Shown one piece after another: positions 21,281-51,838 of a DNA stretch of 64,000 nucleotides. The number at the start of each line of letters is the position of its first letter. Position 1 is the stretch's first letter. Origin of the DNA: Janthinobacterium sp. PC23-8 (GTDB lineage: Bacteria; Pseudomonadota; Gammaproteobacteria; Burkholderiales; Burkholderiaceae_D); contig NZ_NJGY01000001.1 of NCBI RefSeq assembly GCF_002250505.1, forward strand, positions 1,422,489-1,486,488, given 5' to 3'. Made by a program: the position numbers and the translations under genes. Under the pieces are notes generated by a model that was given only the letters and a program-made list of their open reading frames with translations, was not told where the DNA came from and did no database searches.

Positions 21281-21351
21281 TCAAGTATTTCTTCACGTTC
21301 CCGGTCGTTTGGGTCCGCCGGTGACAGCTTGTGGCCGCAGACAGCGATGAC

Positions 21352-24543: not shown

Positions 24544-24573
24544 TGCTGTCTCCTGTATGGTTTTTTAAAATTT

Positions 24574-24602
24574 ATTATTTGTCTATTTCGATATTCCGCC
24601 AA
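24574..24602 (-). promoter_or_regulatory. Predicted promoter of dctPQM
   Basis: On the minus strand TTGGCG (24602-24597) and AATAAT (24579-24574) are 17 bp apart, upstream of dctP. The weak -35 box and the palindrome centred about 60 bp upstream of the expected start site fit an activator-dependent promoter. Confidence 0.45.
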
Positions 24603-24616
24603 AGAAAAATTCATGA

Positions 24617-24638
24617 CTATTGTGGTTAACCACAATAG
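24617..24638. promoter_or_regulatory. Perfect 22-bp palindrome, probable DctR operator
   Basis: CTATTGTGGTT followed by its exact complement stands midway between the divergent dctPQM and sensor-kinase genes. The cognate regulator encoded at 26743 has a LuxR-type helix-turn-helix that would bind such a dyad as a dimer. The assignment to that regulator is inference. Confidence 0.6.
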
Positions 24639-24671
24639 CCGCGTGCCGATTAGCCGCTACCCTGCGATCCC

Positions 24672-35996: not shown

Positions 35997-36026
35997 GCGT
36001 CACGCCAGCCACGCTATAATCACGGC

Positions 36027-37940
36027 ATGAACGCTCCCCTCACGCCCCACCGTCCGATCCAGGCCCTGCCTGACCAGCTGATTTCGCAAATCGCCGCCGG
36101 CGAGGTGGTCGAGCGGCCTTCGGCGGTGGTCAAGGAGCTGCTGGAAAACGCGCTCGACTCGGGCGCCACGCAGATCACCGTGCGCCTGGAAGAGGGTGGC
36201 GTGAAGCGCATCGCGATCACCGACAACGGCCGCGGCATAGCCAAAGACCAGCTGCCGCTGGCCCTGGCGCGCCACGCCACGTCAAAAATCGCCTCGCTGC
36301 ACGACCTGGAAAACGTCGGTACTTTGGGCTTTCGCGGCGAGGCGCTGGCCTCGATCGCGTCGGTGGCGGCCGTCACCGTCACCTCGCGCACGGCGGACGC
36401 TGACCACGCCTGGGAAATCGTCGGCTCGCACACTGGCACGGTGGCGCCCTCGTCGGGCGCACCGGGCACCACGGTCGACGTGCAGGACCTGTATTTCAAT
36501 ACCCCGGCGCGGCGCAAATTCCTGAAGTCCGAACAGACCGAATACGGCCACTGCGCCGAAGTCGTGCGCCGCATCGCGCTGGCGCGGCCCGACGTGTCGT
36601 TCTCGCTGTCGCACAACGGCCGCACCATCGATCAATGGAACATCACTGAACTGGCCAGGCGCAGCGCGCATATCCTTGGCAATGATTTTGCCGAAGCGCG
36701 CCTGGCGCTGGACGAAGCGGCCGGCAGCCTGCGCCTGCACGGCTTTGCCGGCTTGCCAACGGCCTCCAAGGCGCGCGCCGACGGCCAGTTCTTTTATGTC
36801 AACGGCCGCTTCGTGCGCGACAAGCTGCTGGTGCACGCGGTGCGCATGGCCTACCAGGACGTGCTGCACGGCGACCGCTTTCCGTCCTACGTGCTGGCGC
36901 TCGATCTCGACCCGTCGCTGGTTGACGTGAACGTCCATCCGTCCAAAATCGAAGTGCGCTTCCGCGACAGCCGCTCGGTGCACCAGTTCGTGTTCCACGC
37001 GGTGCAGCGCGCGCTGGCGCAAACCTCGGCCACCGCTTTTGGCAGCGTGCCGGCGCCCTTGCCGGCCGCCGCCAGCCTCGGCGGCGATACTGCTGGCCCC
37101 GGCCTGGGTGGACCTGGCCTATGGCGCCGCGAGCAGACGCAGACCTCGTTCGGCGCGCAGTTCACCAATACCTTTGCGCCGGCCCCGGTCCCGGTCCCGG
37201 CTGGCGGCGCCGTGCCCTTCTTTGCCGACGCGCCGGGGGTTGAGCAGACGACGGCCGCGTATGGCGCGCTGTTTGGCGGCGCCGCGTCGCCGGTCACGCA
37301 GGTGCAGCCCTATGTCGCCTCGCCCGAAGCGATGGCGCGCGAAGAGTATCCACTGGGCTTCGCCCTGGCCCAGCTGCACGGCATTTATATTCTGGCGCAG
37401 AACACCAGGGGCCTGGTGCTGGTCGACATGCACGCGGCACATGAGCGCATCCTGTACGAGCAGCTGAAAAACGCGCTGCAGGCGCAGGTGTCGGGCCAGG
37501 ACATGCAGGTGCAAGCCTTGCTGATTCCCGTGACGTTTTATGCGGACGCGATCGAAGTGTCGACGGCGAACGAAAACCAGGACACGTTAAAGGCGCTGGG
37601 CTTCGATATCGCCGCCCTGTCGCCCACCACCCTGGCCGTGCGCAGCGTGCCGACGCTGCTGAAAAACGCCGACGCGCAGACGCTGGCGCGCGACGTGCTG
37701 CGCGACGTGCGCGAATACGGCGGCTCGCGCGTGCTGATCGAGCGCCAGAACGAACTGTTGGGCACCCTCGCCTGCCACACGGCCGTGCGCGCCAACCGCA
37801 TCCTGTCAGTGCAGGAAATGAACGCCCTGTTGCGCCAGATGGAAAGCACCGAGCGCGCCGACCAGTGCAACCATGGTCGGCCGACCTGGGTGCAGGTCGA
37901 GATCAATGCGCTCGATAAATTATTTTTACGTGGGCAGTAG
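36027..37940 (+). CDS. mutL: DNA mismatch repair protein MutL
   Basis: A 637-residue GHKL ATPase linking MutS to strand processing. N-terminal motifs: [66 protein letters not shown] variable linker with Ala, Pro and Gly repeats (residues about 340-430) leads to the C-terminal dimerisation domain ([29 protein letters not shown] and [11 protein letters not shown]). No DQHA(X)2E(X)4E endonuclease motif is seen; the equivalent reads [12 protein letters not shown], so nuclease activity needs checking. It is followed 7 bp later by miaA. Confidence 0.95.
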
Positions 37941-37947
37941 ATTCAAT

Positions 37948-38895
37948 ATGACCAACACCCCCACGCTCCCCCCCGCCGTCGCCATCATGGGCCCCACGGC
38001 CAGCGGCAAGACCGCCTGCGCGCTGGCCATCGCGCAAGCCATCCCTTCCGAGATCATCTCGGTCGACTCCGCCCTCGTCTATCGCGGCATGGATATCGGC
38101 ACGGCCAAGCCCACGCTTGACGAACTGGCGGCCGTGCCGCATCACCTGATCGATATCATCGACCCGCTCGACGCCTACTCGGTGGCGCAGTTCCGCAACG
38201 CTACCCTGCGCCTGGTGAGTGAGATCACGGCGCGCGGCAAGTTGCCACTGCTGGTCGGCGGCACCATGTTGTATTTCAAGGCTCTGGCCGATGGCCTGGA
38301 CGACCTGCCCGGCGCCGACCCGGCCCTGCGTGTGCAACTGGAAGAAGACGCGGCCGCCATCGGCTGGCCCGCCATGCATGCGCGCCTGGCCGCGCTCGAT
38401 CCCGTCACGGCGGCGCGCCTGGCGCCGAACGACGCGCAGCGCGTCCAGCGCGCGCTGGAAATCATCGCCCTGTCGGGCCAGCCCATGTCGGCCCTGCTGG
38501 CGCTGCGCGAAAAAACCGTGCTGCCATTCCAGCTGCAGTCGTTTGCGCTGGAGCCGTCCGACCGCGCCGTGCTGCACGCGCGCATCGCCACGCGTTTTGA
38601 TGCCATGCTGAAAGACGACGCCCTGCTGGACGAAGTGGAAACGCTGCGCCGGCGCGGCGACCTGCACCCGGGCCTGCCTTCGATGCGCTGCGTCGGCTAC
38701 CGCCAGGCCTGGGACTACCTCGACGGTCGCATCGACCGCGCCGCACTGCGCGAGACAGGCATTATCGCCACGCGCCAACTGGCCAAGCGCCAGCTGACCT
38801 GGCTGCGTTCCATGCCGGAGCGCATCGTCATCGACTGCCTGGGTGCTGACCCGGCCGGACAGATGCTGGCGCAGATCCGGACGCGCCTGAGCTAA
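37948..38895 (+). CDS. miaA: tRNA dimethylallyltransferase MiaA
   Basis: A 315-residue enzyme that prenylates A37 of tRNAs reading UNN codons. Walker A is GPTASGKT (residues 15-22). Other hallmarks: [67 protein letters not shown] and the C-terminal [15 protein letters not shown] and [14 protein letters not shown]. The mutL-miaA order is widely conserved in proteobacteria. Confidence 0.96.
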
Positions 38896-38933
38896 GCCGG
38901 GGCGAAAAACCCACAGATTTTTTGCGGCCGGCA

Positions 38934-38962
38934 TTGACAAGGAAAACGGAAGACCGGATAAT
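38934..38962 (+). promoter_or_regulatory. Promoter of tRNA-Met
   Basis: TTGACA (38934-38939) and GATAAT (38957-38962) with a 17-bp spacer form a near-consensus sigma-70 promoter. Transcription would begin about 6 bases before the tRNA. Confidence 0.85.
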
Positions 38963-38974
38963 GCTCGGCTGTTG

Positions 38975-39051
38975 GGTGATATAGCTCAGTTGGTTAGAGC
39001 ACAGCATTCATAATGCTGGGGTCGGTGGTTCAAGTCCACCTATCACCACCA
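38975..39051 (+). tRNA. Elongator tRNA-Met (CAT anticodon)
   Basis: A complete 77-nt cloverleaf. The acceptor arms GGTGATA and TATCACC pair perfectly and the encoded CCA end follows. The anticodon stem is CAGCA/TGCTG with loop TTCATAA, giving anticodon CAT. The T arm is GGTGG-TTCAAGT-CCACC. The anticodon arm (ACAGCATTCATAATGCTGGG) resembles elongator Met and not the Ile-CAT species. Its 3' end is the insertion site of the genomic island that follows. Confidence 0.95.
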
Positions 39052-39057
39052 AGAATT
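39037..39057 (+). other. Left attachment site (attL) of genomic island, in the tRNA 3' end
   Basis: The 21-base stretch from the T arm through CCA to AAGAATT is repeated at 47520-47539 with one base missing. The final 12 bases (CCACCAAGAATT) are identical in both copies. tRNA 3' ends are standard targets for tyrosine integrases. The island itself spans from here to about 47539. Confidence 0.7.
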
Positions 39058-39161
39058 CATCTTCCAAGGTACCAGGAAGGCGAAGAAGCTGTAGTTCTCC
39101 CTCTGGAGACTGCGGCTTTTTTACGTCTGGTCATCCCAAGACGTCCCGCAGCGTCCGAACT

Positions 39162-39293
39162 TTATGGAGGGGGTGGGGTACGACCACCAGAGGCAACGGT
39201 CTTGACGATCAGGCTGCGATCTTCGACACGGCGCTCACACTCAGGAACCTCGCCCTCACGTAACAGCACTTTCACTTCAAAGATCTGGCTCAA
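39162..39293 (-). CDS. Possible short or remnant reading frame
   Basis: A 43-residue frame starting at TTG (39293) reads MSQIFEVKVLLREGEVPECE and ends RTPPPP. It directly follows, and slightly overlaps, the end of the XRE regulator gene. It has no recognisable domain and may be the remnant of a partner gene lost when the island formed. The remaining bases between it and the tRNA (39058-39161) hold only a weak CTCC/GGAG hairpin with a T-run near 39118. Confidence 0.2.
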   Translation of the reverse strand: MSQIFEVKVLLREGEVPECERRVEDRSLIVKTVASGGRTPPPP

Positions 39294-39633
39294 GAGGCTG
39301 ACCTTTAACTACCCCGTCATTTAATTTCGAACGGATGCTCGTCAATGCAGCATCTAGCCCACGTGGCTTCGACGGTATGAAGTGCGCTGGGAAGAGCGTC
39401 TCGAAACCCGCACCTCGTCCAAATCCCTGCGCAACGCGTATTAAAACTTCTACGGAGTCGCAACCTCCCAACTCGAATCGCTTAAAAGTACGCAACGGAA
39501 TACCGCATCTCTCAGCAAATGTTGTCTGGGTAAAGCCCAATTTCTTACGTTCCATGCGAACGCGATCACGTAGCAACGCGAGTACGTCTTGGCTTTCCAT
39601 CGCGTTGGCACGCTCAAAGCTAGGTATAGGCAT
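39277..39633 (-). CDS. XRE-family helix-turn-helix regulator, HipB-like
   Basis: A 118-residue DNA-binding protein. The helix-turn-helix is residues about 22-55 (RMERKKLGFTQTTFAERCGI, PLRTFKRFE). The C-terminal half is a short basic tail. Such proteins serve as antitoxins or island regulators; no HipA or other toxin follows it. Start choice: ATG at 39633 was preferred over 39678 because a TACAAT -10 box overlaps the latter and a 16-bp palindrome lies between the two. It is divergent from the DUF3800 gene. Confidence 0.7.
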   Translation of the reverse strand: MPIPSFERANAMESQDVLALLRDRVRMERKKLGFTQTTFAERCGIPLRTFKRFELGGCDSVEVLIRVAQGFGRGAGFETLFPAHFIPSKPRGLDAALTSIRSKLNDGVVKGQPLEPDL

Positions 39634-39640
39634 AAGAAAA

Positions 39641-39656
39641 GTGCCAAGTTTGGCAC
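39641..39656. promoter_or_regulatory. 16-bp palindrome, probable operator of the XRE regulator
   Basis: GTGCCAA and TTGGCAC flank two bases, directly upstream of the chosen start of the XRE gene. A -10-like TACAAT (minus strand, 39682-39677) lies beyond it. Autoregulation by the adjacent regulator is a reasonable inference. Confidence 0.5.
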
Positions 39657-39778
39657 TAGTGCTGTGGGTAAGTCGCATTGTACCTATTTTTTGGCTATCC
39701 TACGCTCAGCCTTTAAGCATTTAAAACCTTATTAGAATTTTCCGACGGCTGACCGATGTGGCACTAACAGGAGCATGC

Positions 39779-40945
39779 ATGAATAATTACGCGGCCTACA
39801 TAGACGAATCTGGCAATCACGATCTCGCGACTGAAAAAGAGGGGGCATCCAAATATTTTTTAGTGTTGGCAGTTCTGGTCCCACAGACTAAAGTCTCCGA
39901 GTTGGAGGCTGCGATTGAGGTAATCCGCGCCAAACATTTCGGCGTGGGAGAGATGAAGTCGAGCAATGTAAAGGATAAGCGTAGAATTCGGATTCTTGCA
40001 GAGCTGGCACCAATAGATTTTCAATTCTATGCTGTTGCAGTCGATAAGGAAAGAGTGGACAAAGACAGCGGACTGAGACATAAAAAATCATTTATAAAAT
40101 TTGCCAATGGACGACTATACTCCGCACTTTTCAAAAATATAGCTGACGTTTCGATTTTCGCTGATGGCCATGGAAGCCCTGAATTTACTTCAAGTTTTAC
40201 AAAATACATTCGCGAGAATCACAAACCGGACCTGTTCTCCACAGGTGAACTGAAGATGCTAGATAGTAAGACAAGCGTTTTAATTCAGTTGGCTGATTTT
40301 CTTGTCGGCACCATAGCTAAGCTCTACGAAAAAAAATCGACAGAGCAATTCCGGAAAAATTTTTTAACGTTTATCACAAACAAAAGAATTCGTGTGGATG
40401 AGTGGCCTCCGCGCTATGAGTGGCACGGTAAAGAAATCTCAGGGTCAAATCAATTAGACGAAAAGATTCGTAATATTTCATTAAATTCAGCCACTAGCTT
40501 TCTCAACCGTTCGTCGCAAGACGATGATATAGAAAGAAGAATTCAAGAAGCAACACTTCAATTCCTGCTCTTCCAAGCAACGTTCTCGACAAATGAAGAA
40601 GTCCATATTCCAACCCAGAAAATCGTAGAACACCTGCATCTACATGGGTTCACTGAAGTAACAAAGCATTACTTAAGGTCAAGCGTCATATCGAAACTTC
40701 GCGACCATGACGTGATTGTTGCAAGCTCTCCTCGCGGGTACAAAATCCCTACGTCCTATAGTGATATTGTCGAGTTCGCAGACCTAGTTGACGGAATCGC
40801 GTCACCTCTTCTAGCTAGACTGGATCGAGCAAGTGACATTTTCGATTTAGCGAGTATTGGACAAATCCGAATTCTCGATGAGCCACGATTTAAACGTCTT
40901 CGATTTATGCTTGCAAAACTAAAAGAGGCCAGCGATGTAAATTAA
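39779..40945 (+). CDS. DUF3800 domain protein with C-terminal winged-helix-like region
   Basis: A 388-residue protein. The first about 200 residues are DUF3800 (YIDESGNHD at 7-15; FYAVAVDKERVDKDSGLRH; LDSKTSVLIQLADFLVGTIA), an RNase H-like fold with acidic residues D9 and E10 where a metal site would be. Residues about 250-385 look like a winged helix (VHIPTQKIVEHLHLHGFTEV, VISKLRDHDVIVAS). DUF3800 proteins are common in mobile islands and near toxin or defence genes; activity is unproven. AGGAG lies 5 bases before the ATG. Codon use is AT-rich, unlike the chromosome. Confidence 0.8.
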   Translation: MNNYAAYIDESGNHDLATEKEGASKYFLVLAVLVPQTKVSELEAAIEVIRAKHFGVGEMKSSNVKDKRRIRILAELAPIDFQFYAVAVDKERVDKDSGLRHKKSFIKFANGRLYSALFKNIADVSIFADGHGSPEFTSSFTKYIRENHKPDLFSTGELKMLDSKTSVLIQLADFLVGTIAKLYEKKSTEQFRKNFLTFITNKRIRVDEWPPRYEWHGKEISGSNQLDEKIRNISLNSATSFLNRSSQDDDIERRIQEATLQFLLFQATFSTNEEVHIPTQKIVEHLHLHGFTEVTKHYLRSSVISKLRDHDVIVASSPRGYKIPTSYSDIVEFADLVDGIASPLLARLDRASDIFDLASIGQIRILDEPRFKRLRFMLAKLKEASDVN

Positions 40946-41405
40946 CTATGAGGTTTTGGACTCAGCGCTTATAAGTTTCAACGCGATCGCCTCAACCCCT
41001 TTGTTGGCGCCGACCGGAAACTGACCCACCGGGTCAAGTTTTGATAGCCAGACACACGGTTGGGTCGAGCCTACTCGGCTCCAGCTCTTCTATGCTTTAG
41101 TCAACAAACAGCGGCCCCGGGCGCCACAACCGCTGAAACTTAAAGTCAGGCTCTTCTCAGCGTGAGGCGCCGAGCTGTGGCAGCTTGTAAAAGGAGGGAT
41201 CTAGAGAGATAAGACACAGCTAGTGCAAGCGAACCGTCCACCATCTTTCTCCCGCAAACCATATCATGTGAAACGTCGAAGATCTGGGGTCCTCCAGATT
41301 TCAAAAAAGCTCTCAAGAATGGCACGTCATGCCTGTATAAAAGTGTAATATCGTAGAAATGTATTCTAAAACATTAACGTTTTCGTTAGGAACGTGAATG
41401 CTTAA
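40946..41405. other. Intergenic stretch inside the island
   Basis: About 460 bp between two convergent units. No credible gene seen. An imperfect inverted repeat AAACTGACCC-ACC-GGGTCAAGTTT at about 41027-41050 resembles the outer end of an IS element and may be a remnant. A small TAACG-TTTT-CGTTA hairpin lies at 41375-41388, close to the end of the helicase gene. Confidence 0.4.
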
Positions 41406-43562
41406 TTATGTCAATGCACGTGCTATAAATTTTTTATCTAAGTCAGTAAGATTCTTCATGGATCGATACCGAAGGCGGAGATAACGTGCTAATACGTTAA
41501 CATTTACTTTTGCCAAGCGCTCACTTTTTATTTTACTAAGCGTTTGCACGGGAATCCCCATCTCTTCAAGCGCAGAAAATACACCGGGAAGATGGCTATT
41601 TTCAAATTTAGCTTTAACATAATCGAACTGAGCCGAGAAAAGGAGACCGCGCTCATTAATAACGTGATTTATAAGATCTTGCAGAAGAGACAATGTCCGA
41701 GGGACTGCGAATCCAAATATATTACGGATTATTTTTAGATCGCGATCCATAGCAGTGGATTTTAAAATATCTGTAGCATAATGCAAATCTATCCACGCAA
41801 TTATTTCGTCGAGATATGACTGATGACTTTCTGCAAATAAATAACGCGAAATTTTTAATTTCAGGTCCGATTCTTGTGAATGCAAGTTCAAATGCAATAG
41901 TGTTCGGTATTCTGCAATTCTCAATGCGTTACACATTAGCTCTAGCTGAGCTGCGCTAGGCTTCTTCGAACAAGCCTCCTCCAGTTCATAATTTGAATGA
42001 GCTTTTACTGCCTCCAGAACTGCACGGAGAGTCTCTACCCGATATGTAGCATGCTTCTTCAGGATCGACAGCGGTACATGACTCGAAGCAATATAGTCAC
42101 TCAACGTGCCTGCAGCAGCCTCTTGGACATGTTCCGTTTCAATACCCGCTAGTAAATTTGGTGGCGTGGAGGAGCTTTGTAGACCGAGCGGAACATCAAC
42201 AATTCGCCCCTCAATTGTATCTTCAGGAATTTTTTCGAGGCAATGTACATTTCCAACAAAATGCACATTCATACGACCCGCACGTCCTTTTATATTATTA
42301 TGAGTGAATCGATCAATCGATCCAGTTCCGCTTCGATTATCAAATACAACTACCGTTTCTGCATTTGTATTTACACCCTCAATTATTGTGGCCGTACAAA
42401 TCAACACCTTTAATTTTTTCTCATTGAATAGATCAATAGTGTATTGCTGAATGGCGCGAGGCAAAGAACCGTGATGAATACCGATGCCGGCGCGCACTGC
42501 ACGAGAATATGCCCAGGTCGTGCTGTAGTGAGTGTCGATCCAGTCGGTATAACTGGAACGAACACTTGCTCCAATTTCATTTTCTATCAAACTCTCCACG
42601 ATTTCCGCTGCTGCCTGTGGAGAACGACAATAAATAATTGTTTGCTCACCAGAAGTCGACCCAATGGGCCTAAGTATTTTCAACAAGGCTCGGGTTTTTT
42701 CCTCACGATCGTTCGCAGGAATATTATATTCTGTAACATTTACCGCTACTGTATTAAATGCAGAAGGTACGAAAACATAATTTCGACCAAAGTCGTTTAG
42801 TCCGCGCACCTCGTCAACGCTAGGGCCGATCATGTAAAACTGTTTACTTACGAGCAGTAATTTACTCAGGCAGATATTTAGTGAGATAGTTCTTGCGTCA
42901 GCATCATTTTTTTTGAAAGCCAACTTGTAAAACTCATCAATTACGAACAAATCTATGTGTTTGAGATCAGTTCGTTCATTAATGCGCTCTTGGGTGAGCA
43001 CGAACACTGTTTTCCGTGAATCTCGTAGCTCCTGCGAATTATGAGAAATAACATCATAGCGCGACGCAAATTTGTGGGCAATTCGTCGCCGTGTCTCATC
43101 AATAAGTGCAATTGTGGGCACTACGATAACCACTCGAAAATATTTATCACTTGCTATGAGCGAGTCAACGATTGCACTTTTCCCCATACTAGTCGGGGCG
43201 CTCAATACGACATTTCTACCCTCATTTAGTAATTTCAGGATTTTTAGCTGCATCGAATGATATATAAATCCGGGCAGATAAGCGGCTCGGTATATCTCTA
43301 TAGCATATTGCTCCTCGATGGAGATTTTCGCGAACTCACTACTAAGATATGGATAAAGACCCGCCTTACGCACCATAGCTTTCAAGATACCAAGATGGTT
43401 AATGAATTTCTCTTTAGCATCTAATGCACGAATGACCAGCTCTCTACCAAGCACTTCCTCGTATGGATTCGAGAGCAAACTGTTCGCAGTGCTCAGGTAT
43501 ACGAAAGTATCTAACTGATTGCTCCCAAGAGAGCTTATAGCAGTCTCGAATTTTTTAGACAT
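41406..43562 (-). CDS. SF2 helicase of a Hachiman/AbpAB-like defence operon (HamB/AbpB-like)
   Basis: A 718-residue helicase. Motif I is APTSMGKS (residues 122-129), motif II is DEFY (209-212, in place of DEAD), LICTATIIEGVN marks motif V, and KGRAGR (425-430) is motif VI. The C-terminal 280 residues are helical and unrecognised. This layout (Ski2/HamB-type, with TATIIEGVN) fits helicases of the Hachiman and AbpAB anti-phage systems. ATGTCTAA overlaps the stop of the preceding nuclease gene, so the two are made together. Strongly AT-rich codon use marks it as acquired. The helicase presumably senses or tracks phage DNA and licenses the nuclease. Confidence 0.8.
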   Translation of the reverse strand: MSKKFETAISSLGSNQLDTFVYLSTANSLLSNPYEEVLGRELVIRALDAKEKFINHLGILKAMVRKAGLYPYLSSEFAKISIEEQYAIEIYRAAYLPGFIYHSMQLKILKLLNEGRNVVLSAPTSMGKSAIVDSLIASDKYFRVVIVVPTIALIDETRRRIAHKFASRYDVISHNSQELRDSRKTVFVLTQERINERTDLKHIDLFVIDEFYKLAFKKNDADARTISLNICLSKLLLVSKQFYMIGPSVDEVRGLNDFGRNYVFVPSAFNTVAVNVTEYNIPANDREEKTRALLKILRPIGSTSGEQTIIYCRSPQAAAEIVESLIENEIGASVRSSYTDWIDTHYSTTWAYSRAVRAGIGIHHGSLPRAIQQYTIDLFNEKKLKVLICTATIIEGVNTNAETVVVFDNRSGTGSIDRFTHNNIKGRAGRMNVHFVGNVHCLEKIPEDTIEGRIVDVPLGLQSSSTPPNLLAGIETEHVQEAAAGTLSDYIASSHVPLSILKKHATYRVETLRAVLEAVKAHSNYELEEACSKKPSAAQLELMCNALRIAEYRTLLHLNLHSQESDLKLKISRYLFAESHQSYLDEIIAWIDLHYATDILKSTAMDRDLKIIRNIFGFAVPRTLSLLQDLINHVINERGLLFSAQFDYVKAKFENSHLPGVFSALEEMGIPVQTLSKIKSERLAKVNVNVLARYLRLRYRSMKNLTDLDKKFIARALT

Positions 43563-45198
43563 ATTTTGTGCTTTGCAATTTCTCGGCAACAGCTTGTTGC
43601 AACGTCGTTAAACAAGGGTTTGGGAAAAGATATACAAAAAATCTCATTTTATGGAAAAATGTATCTTTCGACAAAAGAATGGAAATCATATCTTGAAATA
43701 ATAATTGCGCTTCTAAAAGGTGAGCATCATTACTACTCAACTGGCCGCGCAACTCAAAATGAGATGATTTATAACCTAGAAATATCACAAAGCAAAACCG
43801 GTCGATATTGTCATCAATTGGGATGCTTTCGTTTAGCAAGTCTGCGACATCGTGGTTAATAAAATAACTATCCTCTTTTATATCCAGAATTCTACGTCTT
43901 TGCTTGCCAAAATCATTTGATATTAATAGATTTATCTTTTCAGCTAATGATTCCATCACATCCGGAAGATCCGCGCTTTCGGAAAATTCGCTTATTCCTA
44001 ACCAAAGCTCGTCACCAGCAGATCGTTTCACAATATGAATATTTTCGAATTCGTCGAATGCAGCGCCTGCATCTACGTACAAGGTAGCCGGAACCGGTTG
44101 ACTATCCGAAAAAAACCGTAAGGCGGAGTGCATTAGAACACGCCCAATAAGCGAAGCTAGCTCTTTCTTTTCTTTATTTAGCCTTTCTGCGATCAGGTTA
44201 AGCTTTCCAAGCACACTCTTCCCAGTATTGTCTGCCAATTCGCTAGGCCTTAGTAATATCTCAGGCAACCACTCCACGACAGATTCTGCAATATATTGAT
44301 AGCGATATACTCCTCTTTCATAGCCTTGTCCAAGCGCCATGCCCGCGAGTTTTTCCGGAACTCCCAAATCAATAAATTTAACTAATATTGGATTCTTTGA
44401 TCCAACACCGTTAAAGTAAACTTTTTTGTAGATAGCCGTATTTTCGCCAACCAGTATTATTTCATTGCTAAACCACGAAATAAAGTCTTCACGTTTATAA
44501 GTTTTATCGTCAGCAGTATATATAGTTCGAGATAATGCACTTTTTTTCGTAATTATCGTCAGTATCGAGTTAAGGATCGCTTGATCCCCAACTCCTGGCT
44601 CCAAGACAATACTTTGTGAAATTGCTGCTTTAAGTATCGAATTTCTTGCCCGAAGCTCCAGTATCTCAAGAGAACTCGCGACTTCCCAAAATGCATTATC
44701 TACCCATTCCTTCACCGCAAGCCCGCTAGAGGTGACGTAAGAATTTAGTTTGGTCTCAAGCGAAGATATAAAGTCCGATCTCGCGTTATTATCAATTCTC
44801 TTATTAGGCGTCGTTCGCAAATACAAAAGTTCTTTGCGAACATCTCGCATACTCAGAATTCGAAATTTCGCTACTCTACCAATACCCTTGCACTGCATCG
44901 ATTTATGAATAATAGAGTCTTCACTAGGAAGAGGTTTTGGCTTCCCTTTCTCTTTTTTTCTTTTGGTCACAGCGCACACTTCGGTGATGGTCCACTTACT
45001 TTCACCATCTGTAGTTTTAACCTGAACAAATTCTTCGTGATCATCAAAAATAAGGTCTATATCGTCTGTTACCTCACATCGCACAGCAAGCAAAGTTTTA
45101 TCGGTTAACATTTGGATGACATATAGAGCGGCAGCATAGTCTTGGAAAAGAAATCCTGCCTTCGCCCCCACGCCGCCAGCATTTGAAGAAATCATCAT
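43555..45198 (-). CDS. Cap4/DUF4297-type nuclease with HamA/AbpA-like C-terminal domain
   Basis: A 547-residue protein. Residues 8-62 read as the start of a DUF4297/Cap4-like PD-(D/E)xK nuclease: GAKAGFLFQDYAAALYV, then E42, DDIDLI (D46-D48) and FVQVKT (Q59, K61), the expected metal and catalytic residues. The middle part is unrecognised. Residues about 370-535 resemble the domain shared by HamA and AbpA (DUF1837): VDAGAAFDEFENIHIVKR, DELWLGISEF, then a helix and FCFVIFLGYKSSHFE. In HamA the equivalent phrase carries Glu and Lys (LGExK); here it reads LGISEFS. The ATG at 45198 was preferred over an upstream TTG. Confidence 0.72.
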   Translation of the reverse strand: MMISSNAGGVGAKAGFLFQDYAAALYVIQMLTDKTLLAVRCEVTDDIDLIFDDHEEFVQVKTTDGESKWTITEVCAVTKRKKEKGKPKPLPSEDSIIHKSMQCKGIGRVAKFRILSMRDVRKELLYLRTTPNKRIDNNARSDFISSLETKLNSYVTSSGLAVKEWVDNAFWEVASSLEILELRARNSILKAAISQSIVLEPGVGDQAILNSILTIITKKSALSRTIYTADDKTYKREDFISWFSNEIILVGENTAIYKKVYFNGVGSKNPILVKFIDLGVPEKLAGMALGQGYERGVYRYQYIAESVVEWLPEILLRPSELADNTGKSVLGKLNLIAERLNKEKKELASLIGRVLMHSALRFFSDSQPVPATLYVDAGAAFDEFENIHIVKRSAGDELWLGISEFSESADLPDVMESLAEKINLLISNDFGKQRRRILDIKEDSYFINHDVADLLNESIPIDDNIDRFCFVIFLGYKSSHFELRGQLSSNDAHLLEAQLLFQDMISILLSKDTFFHKMRFFVYLFPNPCLTTLQQAVAEKLQSTKYV

Positions 45199-45516
45199 AG
45201 ATAAATTGGACTCATGCAAATAACATACAAAACAATGGTTGAGAGACTTTGTGTGTCCATTCTAACCATTTATTCAGAGAAACTGAAATAATTAGTGTAG
45301 CCCTGACCGCTTCGTTACCTATCAGCGAACATTTTTGTCTGCTCGGAAGCACTCCCCCCCCCCGCGAGCAGCAAGTTGAAGATTGCCTCGCCTTATTTGC
45401 GCAAAAATAGGTAGACTTAAAGTTGCTGGAATGACATTTAGTTGACCCTGGTGGGTTCTCTTGCTAGATTTAGTGTATGAGCTCGCAGCACGGTGGCGCT
45501 TCAGATTATGACTAGA
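45199..45516. other. Leader region of the defence operon
   Basis: About 320 bp upstream of the nuclease gene that should hold its promoter, although no strong -35/-10 pair could be fixed. It contains a run of ten C (45354-45363) inside a GCTCG/CGAGC hairpin. No gene seen. Confidence 0.4.
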
Positions 45517-45826
45517 TCACATCAGCCTCTGACTTCCGGCGGAAAGCGGTCTGATAGCAAGCGCATATGGCATATTGATTCCGAAGTATTCATTCCATTC
45601 GGCAAAGTCAATAGCGAACCCATCGGGGATGCGCTCGTCTTCGGCAAGTAATAGTTTTCGATCAGCGTCTGCTGCGTTACGCCGTAACGACTGCGATCCG
45701 TTTCAGTGCCAGCGCCGACCAGGTAATGCGCCATACATTGATCCGGCGCTGGCCCTCGCCGTCCTTGCCGCTAATTACTTTGCTCGCTCGATAGCTTGCT
45801 TGCCTCTCCGCTGCCGTTTCCACCAT
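45517..45826 (-). pseudogene. Decayed plasmid-type small gene, two frameshifts
   Basis: The frame starts well, with GGGGAGAG before ATG 45826, and reads MVETAAERQASYRASKVISG ... WSALALKRIA, then breaks. The sense resumes in a second frame (RYGVTQQTLIE) and again in a third (KLLLAEDERIPDGFAIDFAE, ending RLM). Joined, this matches a small protein family I remember from plasmids and phages (AxxRQxxYRAR ... ALALxRLARRYGVTQREMLE). The function of that family is uncertain. Two frame breaks within 60 bp mark it as inactive. Confidence 0.6.
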
Positions 45827-45845
45827 CGCGCTCTCCCCTGAACAT

Positions 45846-45884
45846 CGTTTATAGCGTCGTTACGCTGTAACGACGCTATAAACG
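45846..45884. repeat. 39-bp palindrome upstream of the decayed gene
   Basis: Perfect 18-bp arms, CGTTTATAGCGTCGTTAC and its complement, flank GCT. It begins 20 bases upstream of the pseudogene start. The central CGTTAC-nnn-GTAACG recurs inside the pseudogene at about 45675-45689. It could be an operator, a plasmid replication element or a terminator stem; no T-run follows. Confidence 0.7.
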
Positions 45885-46073
45885 AAAATTTGAGGTTCAT
45901 CCATGACTCGGCAAAATTTCACCTGCGTCAGATTCGACTGTTCCTGAGCAACATCGGCGAATGCAACGATCACATGAGTTCGCCAAGTTGGTAAAAATGT
46001 TACAGGAATCCCATTGCGAATTCGCGTAAATCTCGATGCATTCAAGAGATTTTCGGCGATTCATTCACCTTAA

Positions 46074-47406
46074 CAGGGTGTTGAATTAATCGCTGTGCCC
46101 GTCAACCGTCACGGGCCGGTAAACGTTGTTGCATCAGCCCCACTTCCCCACCGCCATCATGCGCAAGACCGACGTCACCCAGCACTCTCTGTACAGCTAC
46201 CGCTCGTTGGAAGAACGCATCCCGAATGCGCATCCCTTGCGCAAATTGCGGGTGCTGGTCGACGCCATCCTGGTCAATATGAACGATGATTTCCAGGCGC
46301 TGTATTCGCGTCGGGGCCGTCCTTCGATTGCCCCGGAACGCCTGCTGCGCGCCAGCCTGATCCAGACGCTGTTCTCCATCCGTTCCGAGCGCCAATTGGT
46401 GCAGCACATCGATTACAACCTGCTCTACCGCTGGTTCGTCGGCATGAATCTCGACGAGGCCGTGTGGAATCACTCAACCTTCAGCGCCAACCGTGAGCGC
46501 CTGTTCAGCGAAGCGATGACACAGCGTTTCTTCGCCCAGGTGCTGCGCATCGCCGAATGGAAAAACCTCGTTTCGGACGAGCATTTCACCGTTGACGGCA
46601 CCATGATCGAGGCGTGGGCATCGGTCAAGAGCTTCACCAGGAAGGACGGCAGCGGACCGCCGCCGAGCGACGGCGGGCGCAACGCCACGGTCGACTTCAA
46701 AGGCGAGAAACGCTGCAACGAGACGCATCAATCGACGACCGATCCGGATGCGCGCTTGTACAAGAAAGGCGACGGCGATAAGTCAAGGCTGTGCTACCTG
46801 GGCCACGCGCTGATGGAGAACCGCAATGGCCTCGTGGTCGATGCCACCACCACGCTGGCAAGTGGCACGGCCGAACGGGACGCGGCGCTGATCATGGCCG
46901 GGCGCAGCATCGACAAATCCGGCGCGACGCTGGGCGCCGACAAGGGCTACGACGCGGCCGCGTTCGTCAAGGAACTGCGCGCTCTGGGCGTGACGCCGCA
47001 TGTGGCGCAAAAAAACACAGCGCCATCGATGGACGCACCACGCGCCATGCGGGCTACGCGGTGAGCATCAAGAAACGCAAACTGGTCGAAGAGATCTTCG
47101 GCTGGAGCAAAACCATCGGCGGACTGCGCAAGGCGCGCTTCGTCGGCCTTGCGAAAGTGCGTGCCCAGACCACGTTTACTTTCGCCGCTTACAACCTGAC
47201 ACGCATGGCGACGATCTTTGGCTGGCGGTTATCGGCGATGGTGGGATAGCTCCGTCCAAAGTGGGTAGAAAGCGCTAAAAAATGCCAAAAATCGGCCTGA
47301 AAAGTGGCTGAAAACTGCTTTTTAGGAAAAAAGCGGCTTCCAGCCCAAAAAAATCGCATGTCGGGAGACAAAATCCGAAGGACTGGGTTCCTTTTTCAAC
47401 ACCCTG
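46074..47406 (+). mobile_element. IS5-family insertion sequence, 1333 bp
   Basis: Terminal inverted repeats CAGGGTGTTGAA and TTCAACACCCTG are exact over 12 bp. TTAA stands outside both ends (46070-46073 and 47407-47410), consistent with a 4-bp target duplication of the YTAR type used by IS5. One DDE transposase is encoded, in two overlapping frames. Base composition is higher in GC than the surrounding island, so the IS arrived from a different source. Confidence 0.88.
46159..47249 (+). CDS. IS5-family DDE transposase, interrupted by a -1 frame change
   Basis: The zero frame starts at ATG 46159 (MRKTDVTQHSLYSYRSLEER), contains the DUF772 N-terminal domain and DDE residues in FTVDGTMIEAWAS and GADKGYDAAAF, and stops at 47064. 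At 47010-47016 lies A-AAA-AAC in frame. Reading on in the -1 frame gives HSAIDGRTTRHAGYAVSIKK followed by RKLVEEIFGWSKT, which supplies the catalytic Glu, to a stop at 47249. Either ribosomal slippage makes the fused protein, or a C was lost from an ancestral CAAAACAAACAC and the gene is broken. Confidence 0.82.
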
Positions 47407-47519
47407 TTAACGGTCACTTTTTTAGGCGCTCGCGACCGGTATCAATGGTAGAGCCAATTTCCGTTACCTGAGCAGCTGCAACCGAGCATCCATGCTGCCT
47501 CCAGCGAATCCGAACTGTT

Positions 47520-47539
47520 CACCTATCCCACCAAGAATT
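47520..47539 (+). other. Right attachment site (attR) of genomic island
   Basis: CACCTATCCCACCAAGAATT matches the tRNA-Met 3' region (39037-39057) with one A missing. A terminator follows within 20 bases, as expected for the original downstream flank of the tRNA gene. Confidence 0.65.
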
Positions 47540-47652: not shown

Positions 47653-48951
47653 TTACTCCCACGCTTCCTTGCCCGCACGTGGTTTGCCCACCAGCAGCAA
47701 GGCGCCCAGGGTCAGCAAGGCGGCCAGGGTCAGGTAGTAACCTACATATTGCAGGCCGTAGTTGGTGCCGAGCCAGGTGGCGATATACGGCGCCAGCGAG
47801 GCGCCCAGGATGCCGGCCAGGTTGAAGGTCAGCGAGGCGCCCGTGTAGCGCACTTCCGGCGGGAACAGTTCCGACAGCATGGTGCCCAGGGGACCATAGG
47901 TCATGCCCATCAGGCCCAGGCCGACGGCCATGAACAGCGTCACTTCCCAGGTCACGCCCGAGCCGAACATGGGCGCGAGCACCAGGCCGAAGACGGCGAT
48001 GGCGACCGAGACCCAGATCAACGTGGTGCGGCGGCCGCGGCGGTCCGCCAGGATGGCCGAGAACGGGATCGTCAGCGCGAAGAACAGCACGGCGAACAAT
48101 TGCACGATCAGGAATTCCTTGCGCGTGAAGCCCAGCTTGGTGGTGCCCCAGCTCAGTGCGAACACCGTCATCAGGTAGAACAGCACGAAGGTGGCCAGCG
48201 CCACGATGGTGCCCAGGAACAGCATGCGGCCGTGCTGGCGGAACACGGTGGCCACCGGCAGTTTTACGCGTTCGTTCTTGTCGAGCACTTTCTGGAAGTC
48301 CGGCGTTTCGGTGATTTTCAGGCGCACATACAGGCCGACGATGACCAACAGCGCGCTGGCCAGGAAAGGAATGCGCCAGCCGTAGCTGAAGAACTGCTCT
48401 TCGCTCAAGGTTTCGCTCAGCAGCAGGAAGATGCCGCCCGACAGGAAAAAGCCGATCGGCGCGCCCAGCTGCGGGAACATGCCGTACCAGGCGCGCTTGC
48501 CCGGTGGCGCGTTTTCCGTGGCCAGCAGCACCGCGCCGCCCCATTCGCCACCGAGACCCAGGCCCTGGCCGAAGCGGCACAGCGCCAGCAGCAAGGGCGC
48601 CATGGTGCCGATCGCGGCATAGGTCGGCAGCAGGCCGATCACGACGGTGGAAATGCCCATCGTCAGCAGCGCCGCCACCAGGGTCGCCTTGCGGCCGATG
48701 CGGTCGCCGTAGTGGCCGAACACGGCCGAGCCGATCGGACGCGCGAAAAACGCGATGGCAAAGGTGGCCAGCGACTGCAGCACGGCGGCCGACGGGTCGC
48801 CGGCGGGGAAAAACAATTTCGGGAACACCAGCACGGCGGCGGTGGCGTAGATATAGAAGTCGAAGAACTCGATGGTAGTGCCGATCAGGCTGGCAAACAG
48901 CACCGTGCCTGCCGAATTTTTCTTGGGGGTAATGCTCGGGGTATTGCTCAT
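47653..48951 (-). CDS. MHS-family MFS transporter (a)
   Basis: A 432-residue, 12-helix proton symporter of the metabolite:H+ symporter family, related to ShiA and ProP. Visible: TIEFFDFYIYATAAVLVFP, the helix 2-3 loop FGHYGDRIGRKATL, LGLGGEWGGAVLLATENAPP and the second loop LADRRGRRTTL. The substrate is unknown; relatives carry shikimate, alpha-ketoglutarate or other organic acids. The start MSNTPSITP (48951) has AAGGAG nine bases upstream. It is separate from the second MHS gene and lies just outside the island. Confidence 0.92.
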   Translation of the reverse strand: MSNTPSITPKKNSAGTVLFASLIGTTIEFFDFYIYATAAVLVFPKLFFPAGDPSAAVLQSLATFAIAFFARPIGSAVFGHYGDRIGRKATLVAALLTMGISTVVIGLLPTYAAIGTMAPLLLALCRFGQGLGLGGEWGGAVLLATENAPPGKRAWYGMFPQLGAPIGFFLSGGIFLLLSETLSEEQFFSYGWRIPFLASALLVIVGLYVRLKITETPDFQKVLDKNERVKLPVATVFRQHGRMLFLGTIVALATFVLFYLMTVFALSWGTTKLGFTRKEFLIVQLFAVLFFALTIPFSAILADRRGRRTTLIWVSVAIAVFGLVLAPMFGSGVTWEVTLFMAVGLGLMGMTYGPLGTMLSELFPPEVRYTGASLTFNLAGILGASLAPYIATWLGTNYGLQYVGYYLTLAALLTLGALLLVGKPRAGKEAWE

Positions 48952-49402
48952 GTACTGCGCTCCTTGGGGAGGGTGTCTAAAGGCCATTCTCTGGATGTTT
49001 GTTCAGGCGGCAGCACGGCGCGTTGTCTCGACGCGTCGCTGGCATATCATAGCCGCGCGCGCTCGCGTTTGCTGCGCATTTGCCAATCAATGTGCAAACA
49101 AAAAAACAACGTTCGTGCGCAATCCGGTGATCCGGGGCACGGCAGGAAGGGCGTCAGGGGATGAGGACGTGTGTCAGCGCCCGGCGATTGCCAGGCATTT
49201 CCGTACCAGAATTGCGCGTCGCATCGCGGCATCGGTCATTTGTGGTGAATCCTTGCCTGCGGCCGCCCGCGGTGGAGCCGGCCGTGATGATCGCGCCTGC
49301 ATCTTGTGAGGGATGCGGTTGATCTTGCTGTATGGATTCATGATACGCGTAGTGGTGCACTGCGGCAAGAAAGTTGTGGCGCGGCGGCGCCACGGGCCGC
49401 AT
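48952..49402. other. Intergenic stretch of 451 bp
   Basis: No clear gene. A minus-strand frame from about 49340 to 49174 (MNPYSKINRIPHKMQ ... MRRAILVRKCLAIAGR) is open but has no ribosome-binding site and no recognisable domain. The promoter for the MFS gene must lie at its left side. Confidence 0.4.
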
Positions 49403-49726
49403 TCAAATGTCGATCAGGGCGAACGCCTGCCCGATCTCGCCGCTGTCGAGCGGGCGCACCAGCCGCGCCACTTCCTGGCCGTCCTTGAGGAAGATCAGGG
49501 TTGGCCACAGCTTGACCCTGAACGAACGCCCGAGCAGGCGGCCGCTGCCGTCCTCCACGCGCAGGTGCGGCACGTCGGGGTGGTGTGCAAAGGCGGCCGC
49601 CAGCGGCGCGTCGGTGGCGCGGCAATGGCCGCACCAGCCGGTGCCAAATTCCAGCAAGGTCGCGCCCGGCAATGCGTCGATGTCGGCGCGCGTGGGCTGC
49701 GCCACGGCGTAGGTTTTGCTCATCAT
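49403..49726 (-). CDS. Thioredoxin-family protein
   Basis: A 107-residue thioredoxin fold with active-site W-C-G-H-C (FGTGWCGHCRATDAPLAAAF) in place of the usual CGPC, and the cis-proline loop FRVKLWPTLIFLKDG. No signal peptide. Probably a cytoplasmic disulfide reductase of unknown partner. GAGGAG precedes the start. It follows the FAH-family gene on the same strand after a GCCTGATCAGGC palindrome and six T. Confidence 0.88.
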   Translation of the reverse strand: MMSKTYAVAQPTRADIDALPGATLLEFGTGWCGHCRATDAPLAAAFAHHPDVPHLRVEDGSGRLLGRSFRVKLWPTLIFLKDGQEVARLVRPLDSGEIGQAFALIDI

Positions 49727-49767
49727 CGGTGTCTCCTCAAAAAAGCCAGTAGCCTGATCAGGCCGCG

Positions 49768-50463
49768 TCAGACGACCTTGAGGCGCAATTCGCCCAGGCC
49801 GGTGATGGTACCCAGCAGTTCGTCGCCACGCTGCACCGCCGCCACGCCGGCCGGTGTGCCCGTGTAGATCAGGTCGCCCGGCTGCAAGGTGAAATAGGTC
49901 GACAGGTCGGCAATGGTTTCGGCCACGTTCCAGATCAGTTTGTCGATATTGCTGCTTTGCCGCACGGCGCCATTGACCTGCAGCGTGATGGCGGCGCTAC
50001 CGATCTCGCCGGCCTGGGCGGCCGGAGTGATGGGGCCGATCGGCGCGGAGTATTCAAACGCCTTGCCCGTATCCCAGGGCCGGCCCAGTTTTTTGGCCGC
50101 GCCCTGCACGTCGCGGCGCGTCATGTCGAGGCCAATCGCATAGCCCCACACATGCTCCATTGCCTGTTCCACGGCGATATCGCTGCCGCCCTTGCCGATC
50201 GCCACCACCAGTTCCATCTCGTGCTGGAAGTCCTCCGTTTGCGCCGGATACGGCAGTTCGCCGGTGGCGCCGTGTGCCACCGGCAGCACGGCGTCGGCCG
50301 GCTTCATGAAAAAGAACGGCGCCTCGCGGCCCGTGTGGCCCATTTCCTGGGCGTGATCGACGTAGTTGCGACCCACGCAATAAATGCGGTGGACGGGAAA
50401 CAGGGCCTGCTGACCGACGACGGGCACGGCGGCCTGCACCGGTGCGGCGAAAACATACGACAT
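49768..50463 (-). CDS. Fumarylacetoacetate hydrolase family protein
   Basis: A 231-residue Mg-dependent enzyme of the FAH superfamily, which includes fumarylpyruvate and acylpyruvate hydrolases. Key stretches: IYCVGRNYVDHAQEMGH, EAPFFFMKPADAVL, the metal-site DFQHEMELVVAIG, WGYAIGLDMTRRDVQ and the terminal GDLIYTGTPAGVAAV. The exact substrate is uncertain; position near pca genes suggests aromatic degradation, but a terminator-like hairpin separates it from the gene upstream. AGGAGAG precedes the ATG. Confidence 0.9.
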   Translation of the reverse strand: MSYVFAAPVQAAVPVVGQQALFPVHRIYCVGRNYVDHAQEMGHTGREAPFFFMKPADAVLPVAHGATGELPYPAQTEDFQHEMELVVAIGKGGSDIAVEQAMEHVWGYAIGLDMTRRDVQGAAKKLGRPWDTGKAFEYSAPIGPITPAAQAGEIGSAAITLQVNGAVRQSSNIDKLIWNVAETIADLSTYFTLQPGDLIYTGTPAGVAAVQRGDELLGTITGLGELRLKVV

Positions 50464-50485
50464 GGTCTCTCCTGGAAAATGGGGT

Positions 50486-50514
50486 AAAAAATGGCAGCCA
50501 TCACGCTGCCATTT
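50486..50514 (-). terminator. Minus-strand terminator upstream of the FAH gene
   Basis: AAATGGCAG (50489-50497) and CTGCCATTT (50506-50514) form a 9-bp stem with an 8-base loop; the minus strand then runs into T-rich sequence. It ends the MHS transporter message and lies only 22 bases before the next start codon. Confidence 0.75.
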
Positions 50515-50545
50515 CCTGAGTGCTTATTCTACGACGTTTGCATGC

Positions 50546-51838
50546 TTATTTCAGCAGGCCCGAACGGCTCGGGTCCGGCATGCGGATGGCCACGATAAAC
50601 GAGATCAGGCACATGACGGTGACGTACCAGTAGAAATACTCCTCCACGTGCCAGGCCTTGAACTGCAGCGCCACGTATTCGGCCGAACCGCCGAACATGG
50701 CGTTGGCCACCGCATACGACAGGCCCACACCCAGCGCGCGCACTTCGACCGGGAACATCTCGGCCTTGATCAGGCCGCTGATCGAGGTGTAGAAGCTGAT
50801 GATGGCCAGCGCGATGATGATCAGGCCAAACGCCGCGTACGGGCTGCTGATGTCTTTCAGGGTGTGCATGATCGGCAGCACGCACAAGGTGGCCAGGCCG
50901 CCGAAGAACAGCATCGAGGTGCGCCGGCCGATACGGTCCGACAAGGCGCCGAACACCGGCTGCAGGATCATATACACCAGCAAGGCGCAGGTCATCACGG
51001 CGCTGGCCGTCTTGGTGTCCATGCCGGCCGTGTTGACCAGGTATTTCTGCATATAGGTGGTAAAGGTGTAGAACACCAGCGAGCCGCCGGCCGTAAAGCC
51101 CAGCACCGTGACAAAGGCGCGCTTGTGCTTGAGCAGGCCGCGCAAGCTGCCCGCGTCCTTGTCCTTGCGCTCGCTGGCGGTGGTCGTTTCGGTCAGGGAC
51201 TTGCGCAGGTTCAGCGACACCAACGCAGCCAGCGCGCCAAACACGAAGGGGATGCGCCAGCCCCAGGCACGCAGCTCTTCCAGGGTCAGCAGTTGCTGCA
51301 GCACCACCAGCACCAGCAGCGCCAGCAACTGGCCGCCGATCAGGGTGACGTACTGGAACGAGGCGAAAAAGCCGCGCTTGCCCGATTCCGACACTTCGCT
51401 CATGTAGGTGGCGCTGGTGCCGTATTCGCCGCCGACCGACAGGCCCTGGAACAGGCGCGCCAGCAGCAGCAGGAACGGCGCGAAGGCGCCGATGGTGTCA
51501 TAGGTGGGCATGACGGCGATCATCAGCGAGCCGCCGCACATCATCAGCACGGAAATCATCATCGACTGACGGCGGCCGTATTTGTCGGCGATGCGGCCGA
51601 ACAGCCAGCCGCCGACCGGGCGCATCAGGAAGCCGGCGGCAAAGATGCCGGCCGTTTGCAGCAGCTGCGTGGTCGGATTACCGGAAGGGAAAAAAGCGTG
51701 CGAGAAATACAGGGCACAGAAGGAATAAATATAGAAATCGAACCATTCCACCAGGTTGCCGGAGGAGGCGCCGATAATGGCCTTGATGCGTTGCTGGGAT
51801 GTCAGCTGCGCAACGTCGTGCGGTGTGTCATGTGTCAT
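50546..51838 (-). CDS. MHS-family MFS transporter (b), KgtP/PcaT-like
   Basis: A 430-residue, 12-helix proton symporter. Signature segments: [74 protein letters not shown] and [14 protein letters not shown]. It stands directly downstream of pcaIJF, so beta-ketoadipate, alpha-ketoglutarate or an aromatic acid are likely cargo (inference). The first codon is at 51838, 20 bases past a strong terminator. The ribosome-binding site is AAGAAGA. Confidence 0.9.

What the first reader, a model, noticed from the sequence alone, without database searches (positions are those of the whole stretch)
41406..45198. Two-gene nuclease-helicase defence operon related to Hachiman/AbpAB but with a different nuclease
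Seen: two AT-rich genes overlap by ATGTCTAA. The first has an N-terminal PD-(D/E)xK pattern of the DUF4297/Cap4 type (E42, D46-D48, QVK 59-61) and a C-terminal part resembling the HamA/AbpA domain. The second is an SF2 helicase with APTSMGKS, DEFY and KGRAGR motifs. Known: Hachiman pairs HamA with the helicase HamB, and AbpAB is a nuclease-helicase pair. Inferred: this is a variant where the nuclease of one defence family is mounted on the docking domain of another.
Basis: partly seen in the sequence, partly recalled or inferred. Interest (0 to 1): 0.85.

Follow-up and report, generated by a model that had tools for sequence, protein, structure and literature searches.

The report
AbpAB-type Hachiman phage-defence gene pair
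Two overlapping genes encode a DNA-cutting enzyme and a helicase that are distant but end-to-end relatives of the known E. coli phage-defence pair AbpA-AbpB, here on a small island at a tRNA gene; it is a new example of a known system, not a new kind.

Summary
On the minus strand, 45198-43555 encodes 547 aa and 43562-41406 encodes 718 aa, overlapping by ATGTCTAA. Protein 1 is Cap4_nuclease plus HamA; protein 2 is an SF2 helicase. They match the two chains of one solved complex, 8ZUE (E. coli AbpA and AbpB), nearly end to end (E 1e-103, 2e-187). So this is AbpAB, not a variant with a different nuclease. The Cap4-on-HamA make-up, the dead HamA site and the label 'Hachiman variant' are in print (Tuck 2024; Sasaki 2023); PADLOC holds a full-length model. 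In 62 distinct Cap4-HamA proteins the Cap4 residues are kept in 62, the HamA D-E-K triad in 0, against 14 of 15 HamAs without Cap4. The pair sits on an 8.5-kb island at tRNA-Met that five genus members examined lack there. Ordinary and well explained; low interest.

The parts
43555..45198 (-). abpA homologue, 547 aa: Cap4-type nuclease domain (residues 8-196) and inactive HamA domain (303-526)
   Evidence: Pfam; PDB 8zue_A E 1.4e-103 over residues 2-542; PADLOC PDLC00153 E 9e-172; structure model
41406..43562 (-). abpB homologue, 718 aa, SF2 (Ski2-like) helicase
   Evidence: PDB 8zue_B E 1.8e-187 over 3-718 of the 719-residue stretch given (one extra residue in front of the Met); PADLOC HamB PDLC00180 E 6e-213; motifs
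45016..45078 (-). Cap4 catalytic core coding stretch, C41-K61 (E42, D45, D46, Q59, V60, K61)
   Evidence: 62 of 62 distinct fusion rows keep E, D, D, Q, V, K; K-12 equivalents of Q59 and K61 are Q58 and K60, needed for defence by Sasaki 2023
43987..44046 (-). former HamA catalytic site, residues 385-404: D to E385, E to I402, K to E404
   Evidence: alignment with HamAs lacking Cap4
38975..39051 (+). tRNA-Met(CAT) at the left edge of the island
   Evidence: ARAGORN
39046..39057 (+). left copy of 12-bp direct repeat CCACCAAGAATT (putative attL core at the tRNA 3' end)
47528..47539 (+). right copy of the 12-bp direct repeat (putative attR core)
   Evidence: the sequence here follows tRNA-Met directly in five genus members
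39058..47527 (.). putative integrated island (about 8.5 kb) carrying the pair
   Evidence: interruption against relatives L101-L105; low GC over most of it

Best explanation
This is an AbpAB (Cap4-fused Hachiman) abortive-infection system gained on a small tRNA-Met island. Most likely working: AbpA and AbpB form a complex through the HamA domain of AbpA, which has lost its own nuclease site and serves as the docking and gating part. AbpB watches DNA; single-stranded ends, SSB-coated replication intermediates or damage trigger ATP-driven movement of the helicase. That releases or assembles the Cap4-type domain, which cuts phage and host DNA, so the infected cell stops before phage are made. Shown here: domain make-up, predicted fold of AbpA, conserved nuclease and helicase motifs, loss of the HamA triad, gene pairing, island. 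Taken from published work on E. coli AbpAB and HamAB: complex, trigger, need for nuclease and helicase residues, abortive infection. Inferred: that this copy is expressed and works the same way, and that its HamA domain is the dock and gate.
For: Near full-length matches of both proteins to the two chains of 8ZUE. Pfam Cap4_nuclease + HamA. PADLOC HamA and HamB full-length models, the same top models as for K-12 AbpA and AbpB. Model: mean pLDDT 85.6; Z 26.4 to 8zue_A, 16.4 to LmuA 9ux7_C, 14.2 to Cap4 6vm6_B, 15.6 to HamA 8vx9_A. Cap4 residues kept in 62 of 62, HamA D-E-K in 0 of 62. An AbpB-like ORF lies next on the same strand in 61 of 61 fusion loci examined. Sasaki 2023 (PMC10732053, abstract and passages): Q58A or K60A in AbpA, or ATP-site changes in AbpB, abolish defence; phage Gp32 on ssDNA or host DNA damage triggers. 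Tuck 2024 (PMC12278908, passages): AbpA is a Cap4-HamA chimera with an inactive HamA site; in HamAB the helicase gates the nuclease.
Against: No functional data for this copy. Identity to E. coli AbpA is only 37%, and the window row sits on a long branch with an Arcobacteraceae sequence, so trigger and target range could differ. Sasaki 2023 speculated that AbpAB is 'not a direct equivalent' of Hachiman. Superposition of the whole model on 8zue_A is loose (rmsd 8.5 over 490 residues) and pTM is 0.63, so the relative placing of the two domains is uncertain. Promoter-like sites are no more than in shuffles (12 against a mean of 10.5).
Confidence: 0.92

Rival explanations
1. A canonical Hachiman in which the HamA domain itself cuts DNA and the N-terminal Cap4 domain is an accessory.
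For: HamA fold in the model (8vx9_A Z 15.6); PADLOC files it as HamA.
Against: The D-GExK triad reads E385, I402, E404 here; 0 of 62 fusions keep all three, against 14 of 15 HamAs without Cap4. In E. coli AbpA the Cap4 residues Q58 and K60 are needed.
Confidence: 0.03
2. A new system: Cap4 nuclease newly recruited by this lineage to a Hachiman scaffold, separate from AbpAB.
For: Only 37% identity to K-12 AbpA; no other full-length match in 195 genomes of the same family or in 369 of the class sample, both counts including the own genome.
Against: In the HamA-domain tree the 62 Cap4 fusions are one side of one branch (support 99/96, in 98% of 200 bootstrap trees), and the window lies inside the half that holds K-12 AbpA (several long branches, one origin compatible but not proved). 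End-to-end match to 8ZUE.
Confidence: 0.03
3. A decayed, non-functional copy on an old island.
For: The IS5-like transposase reading upstream is split over two frames; no integrase among the island ORFs scanned; no promoter signal above chance.
Against: Both long genes are open, overlap as in many other members, and keep every nuclease and helicase motif tested.
Confidence: 0.05

Closest known systems
AbpAB of Escherichia coli (PDB 8ZUE, titled there 'Hachiman defense system from Escherichia coli')
   Same: Same two proteins in the same order with overlapping genes, same domains end to end, same Cap4 residues (D45/Q58/K60 in E. coli are D46/Q59/K61 here), dead HamA site. The K-12 copy lies near rnlAB and alpA; that this is a cryptic prophage is recalled.
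   Different: 37% identical in AbpA; 8-base gene overlap against 4; different island, tRNA-Met site and host.
Hachiman HamAB (E. coli ECOR31, PDB 8VX9)
   Same: HamA fold and Ski2-like helicase partner.
   Different: In HamAB the HamA domain is the nuclease; here its triad is lost and a Cap4-type nuclease is fused in front. The helicase is shorter (718 aa against 1174).
Trypsin-HamA (HamMAB) Hachiman, Science 2025 (PMC12799240, passages); example L016
   Same: Another effector fused in front of a HamA with a lost triad (SSS in L016).
   Different: The fused part is a protease that activates a separate nuclease.
Cap4 of CBASS; LmuA of Lamassu; DUF4297 of HerA-DUF4297
   Same: Same nuclease fold (Z 14.2, 16.4 and 15.4).
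   Different: No SAVED domain found, and the partner is an SF2 helicase, not an SMC-like LmuB or HerA.

Membership tests
AbpAB (Cap4-fused Hachiman) | AbpA: N-terminal Cap4 nuclease domain plus C-terminal HamA domain | tested here: met
   PF14130 res 8-196 E 2.2e-33; PF08878 res 303-526 E 6e-19; model matches
AbpAB (Cap4-fused Hachiman) | Cap4 residues shown to be needed for defence in E. coli (Q58, K60), and the aligned acid D45, present | tested here: met
   D46, Q59, K61; Q58A and K60A effects from Sasaki 2023 passages, which name D45 without a mutant in what I saw
AbpAB (Cap4-fused Hachiman) | HamA catalytic triad degenerate | tested here: met
   E385, I402, E404 in place of D, E, K
AbpAB (Cap4-fused Hachiman) | AbpB SF2 helicase encoded directly downstream, intact motifs | tested here: met
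   8zue_B E 1.8e-187; motifs; 8-base overlap
AbpAB (Cap4-fused Hachiman) | Phylogenetic placement with E. coli AbpA | tested here: met
   window in the 30-row group with K12, support 100/100, inside the 62-row fusion group, 99/96 (long branches)
AbpAB (Cap4-fused Hachiman) | AbpA and AbpB form a complex | not testable with these tools
   no co-folding offered; solved for the E. coli relatives (8zue chains A and B)
AbpAB (Cap4-fused Hachiman) | Protection against phage by abortive infection | not testable with these tools
   needs a plaque assay
Canonical Hachiman (HamA as nuclease) | intact D-GExK nuclease site in HamA | tested here: not met
Canonical Hachiman (HamA as nuclease) | HamA-fold domain with partner Ski2-like helicase | tested here: met
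   8vx9_A Z 15.6, rmsd 3.5, 225 aligned; PADLOC HamB
Cap4 effector of CBASS | C-terminal SAVED domain | tested here: not met
   Pfam lists only Cap4_nuclease and HamA at E up to 1
Lamassu LmuA | SMC-like LmuB partner | tested here: not met
   the neighbouring partner is a DEAD/Helicase_C protein

The most novel reading that the evidence does not exclude
The dead HamA domain is not a mere leftover but a reused docking-and-gating module: its nuclease site was lost about when Cap4 was fused (the tree is compatible with one origin) and is intact in none of 62 surveyed proteins, while residues beside the old pocket (H388, W399, G401) stayed nearly fixed, so the old pocket may now bind DNA ends or gate Cap4 assembly. 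This would bear on Tuck et al.'s open remark on why AbpA keeps an inactive HamA.
Probability: 0.25. Interest if true: 0.4.

Novelty: new member of a known kind. Interest (0 to 1): 0.14.

Why it matters
It adds a diverged AbpAB, carried on a tRNA-Met island, in a family where the 195-genome sample held no other full-length copy. The survey attached to it (Cap4 site kept in 62 of 62, HamA triad in 0 of 62) supports, on a wider set, the published view that AbpA's HamA domain is catalytically dead and the Cap4 domain does the cutting. It does not open a new mechanism.

Tried and rejected
Different nuclease from AbpAB: rejected, since E. coli AbpA has the same Cap4 domain. Active HamA: rejected on the triad. 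A Cap4-HamA with an intact HamA triad (an intermediate): looked for in 62 fusions and one more, L109 (regex only); none seen. A link between the DUF3800 and HTH neighbours and AbpAB: blastp of both against the ORFs (120 aa or more) of the loci held found only the window's own copies. The 19-nt perfect hairpin at 45845-45885 as a recurring repeat: found at one place in the own genome and in none of 20 further genus members. NCBIfam gave nothing for AbpA. Cui 2025 (Nat Commun, a Hachiman complex paper that I take, unchecked, to describe 8ZUE) is not held; I saw only its reference-list entry.

Dropped rows: of the 65 loci, 12 were left out of the 62-row count: L043, L055 and L078 (incomplete), L081 (the two halves in different frames), and L079, L080, L082, L083, L085, L086, L087, L088 (no full-length match; Pfam on L082 and L083 shows Cap4 without HamA). 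L001 and L019 (copies of the window) and L050 (identical to L049) were also dropped; K-12 AbpA was added. The scan used patterns that include the CE..DDI motif, so conservation of C41-I47 is partly built in; Q59-V60-K61 and the HamA columns are not. The HamA-without-Cap4 set is 14 of the 16 hits (the other two being the window and the fusion L017) plus L007. In one search, of 10 further loci (L098, L106-L114), 7 showed a GExK or TExK motif in context, L109 (a fusion) did not, and in L112 and L114 no such motif was found in context. The structure model used 33 of the 62 fusions. For the empty site I took 5 of the 39 other genus genomes.
Full report
What is there. Both genes are on the minus strand. 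The first, 45198-43555, encodes 547 aa; the second starts at ATG 43562 and ends at 41406 (718 aa); they overlap by ATGTCTAA (sequence). GC in 2-kb windows is 0.40-0.44 over the pair against 0.63-0.67 in the windows 36001-39000 and 48001-51000.

Domains. Protein 1 has Cap4_nuclease (PF14130) at 8-196, E 2.2e-33, and HamA (PF08878) at 303-526, E 6e-19; protein 2 has DEAD and Helicase_C. PADLOC gives full-length HamA (PDLC00153, E 9.1e-172, residues 2-543) and HamB (PDLC00180, E 6.2e-213) models; the same two models are the best for K-12 AbpA and AbpB. NCBIfam has no match for protein 1. Against solved structures, protein 1 matches 8zue_A ('Anti-bacteriophage protein A') over 2-542, E 1.4e-103, and protein 2 matches 8zue_B ('Anti-bacteriophage protein B') over 3-718 of the 719 residues given, E 1.8e-187. 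So the pair is AbpAB.

Structure. An AlphaFold2 model of protein 1, made with 33 of the 62 fusion sequences, has mean pLDDT 85.6 and pTM 0.63. VIA-align gives Z 26.4 to 8zue_A (490 aligned, rmsd 8.5), 16.4 to LmuA 9ux7_C (200, 3.0), 15.4 to DUF4297 in 9c1m_G (184, 3.3), 14.2 to Cap4 6vm6_B (194, 3.6) for the N-terminal half, and 15.6 to HamA 8vx9_A (225, 3.5) for the C-terminal half. Foldseek also ranks 8zue_A first, E 1.6e-38. The loose whole-chain rmsd and the pTM mean that the placing of the two domains is not reliable.

Catalytic sites across the family. A profile of six AbpA-like proteins was scanned over genome contigs (65 loci) and viral contigs (2 loci). With five records from plasmids and phages, one sampled genome (L017), K-12 and the window, 62 distinct full-length fusions remained after dropping 12 of the 65 loci and copies (list under Tried and rejected). 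E42, D45, D46, Q59, V60 and K61 are kept in 62 of 62; the E and D columns were partly selected by the scan pattern, QVK was not. The HamA D, E and K columns are all three kept in 0 of 62 fusions, but in 14 of 15 HamA proteins without Cap4; the one exception, L016, is itself a trypsin-HamA fusion. Taken singly, D is still there in 5 and K in 8 of the 62 fusions, E in none. In the window the three read E385, I402, E404. The E column in the fusions holds F, L, R, V, I, Q, H or T and never an acid, while the neighbouring G401 is kept in 61 of 62. One more fusion (L109) also lacks the motif (regex).

Pairing and ancestry. In 61 of 61 fusion loci (K-12 not in this count, but annotated so) a helicase ORF like AbpB comes next on the same strand, with gaps of -113 to +103 bases by first-start ORF calls. 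Helicase residues are fixed in 63 of 63 rows (62 partners of fusions and the helicase of L007) at the Walker A GKS, the DE and the GRAGR positions. In a tree of the HamA domain (77 rows) the Cap4 fusions form one side of one branch (99/96; 98% of 200 bootstrap trees); the window groups with an Arcobacteraceae MAG sequence (98/93) inside the 30-row half that holds K-12 AbpA (100/100). Several branches are long and the tool warns of this, so one origin of the fusion is compatible, not proved. It agrees with the remark in the Science 2025 paper that other HamA fusions occurred just once each (PMC12799240, passages).

Spread. In the own genome there is one copy. No other full-length match was found in 195 genomes of the family (three partial matches, L098-L100) or in 369 of the class sample, both counts including the own genome. 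PF08878 hits 16 of 398 genomes of the phylum sample and 13 of 385 of another class of the phylum. The E. coli form, found with the Citrobacter genes as query, is in 362 of 5,426 complete E. coli genomes.

Setting. One tRNA-Met lies at 38975-39051. In the five genus members that I looked at (5 of the 39 others), the tRNA-Met 3' end is followed directly by the sequence that in the window begins at 47528; the 12-mer CCACCAAGAATT stands at 39046-39057 and 47528-47539. About 75 bases right of the junction align in all five. Further right, L101 and L102 align again from the MFS gene on, after about 0.65 kb and 4.2 kb of other sequence; L103-L105 do not align further in the stretches fetched. Four of the five have two tandem tRNA-Met genes, L104 one. 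This fits an 8.5-kb island integrated at the tRNA 3' end; none of the island ORFs that I scanned with Pfam (HTH, DUF3800, AbpA, AbpB, two transposase frames) is an integrase, so how it moved is unknown.

What is in print. Sasaki et al. 2023 (PMC10732053; abstract and passages): AbpA has Cap4 (5-215) and HamA (294-519) domains; Q58A or K60A abolish defence; AbpB ATP-site changes too; Gp32 on ssDNA or DNA damage activates; they speculated that AbpAB is not a direct equivalent of Hachiman. Tuck et al. 2024 (PMC12278908; passages): the C-terminal part of AbpA is like HamA but with inactive residues; [quoted passage not shown] why it keeps a dead HamA 'remains enigmatic'. Passages of four further papers were seen: PMC10952713 lists PF08878 as shared by Hachiman and AbpA/AbpB, PMC12198126 tabulates AbpAB among two-component systems, PMC13381803 lists it among SSB-activated systems, PMC13316683 does not mention it. 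Found by the searches. The structure 8ZUE is titled a Hachiman defence system from E. coli.

Mechanism. Shown here: the parts, the predicted fold and the conserved sites. Carried over from E. coli AbpAB and HamAB: complex, trigger, need for both enzymes, abortive infection. Inferred: that this copy works, and that its HamA domain is the dock and gate. Verdict: a new, diverged member of a known kind.

Noticed in passing
window 39758-40945 (+): DUF3800 protein (PF12686 E 1e-13), matching PADLOC candidate PDC-M04A (E 6e-15), on the same island; no relative among the ORFs of the other loci held.
   Followed up: partly
window 39277-39678 (-): Small HTH protein at the left end of the island, weak matches to RstR/MqsA-type regulators, below the curated cut-offs.
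   Followed up: no
window 46070-47410: IS5-like element with 16-bp perfect inverted ends (46070-46085 / 47395-47410; plasmid relatives annotated IS5 family); the transposase reading is split over two frames near a run of A, programmed frameshift or broken gene not decided.
   Followed up: partly
window 45845-45885: 19-nt perfect hairpin with a 3-nt loop and a partial further copy at 45675-45691; at one place in the own genome and absent from 20 genus members.
   Followed up: partly
L016:1453-2901: Trypsin-HamA fusion with the triad SSS and a 244-aa upstream gene without a Pfam match over its cut-off; resembles the published HamMAB arrangement.
   Followed up: partly
L081:6776-8595: Cap4 and HamA halves lie in two different overlapping frames in a Stutzerimonas locus: a split or broken AbpA.
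   Followed up: no
L101-L105: Four of five genus members carry two tandem tRNA-Met genes where the window has one; one copy may have been lost with the island's arrival.
   Followed up: no
window 20001-25000: Second dip in GC (0.57-0.60), not examined.
   Followed up: no
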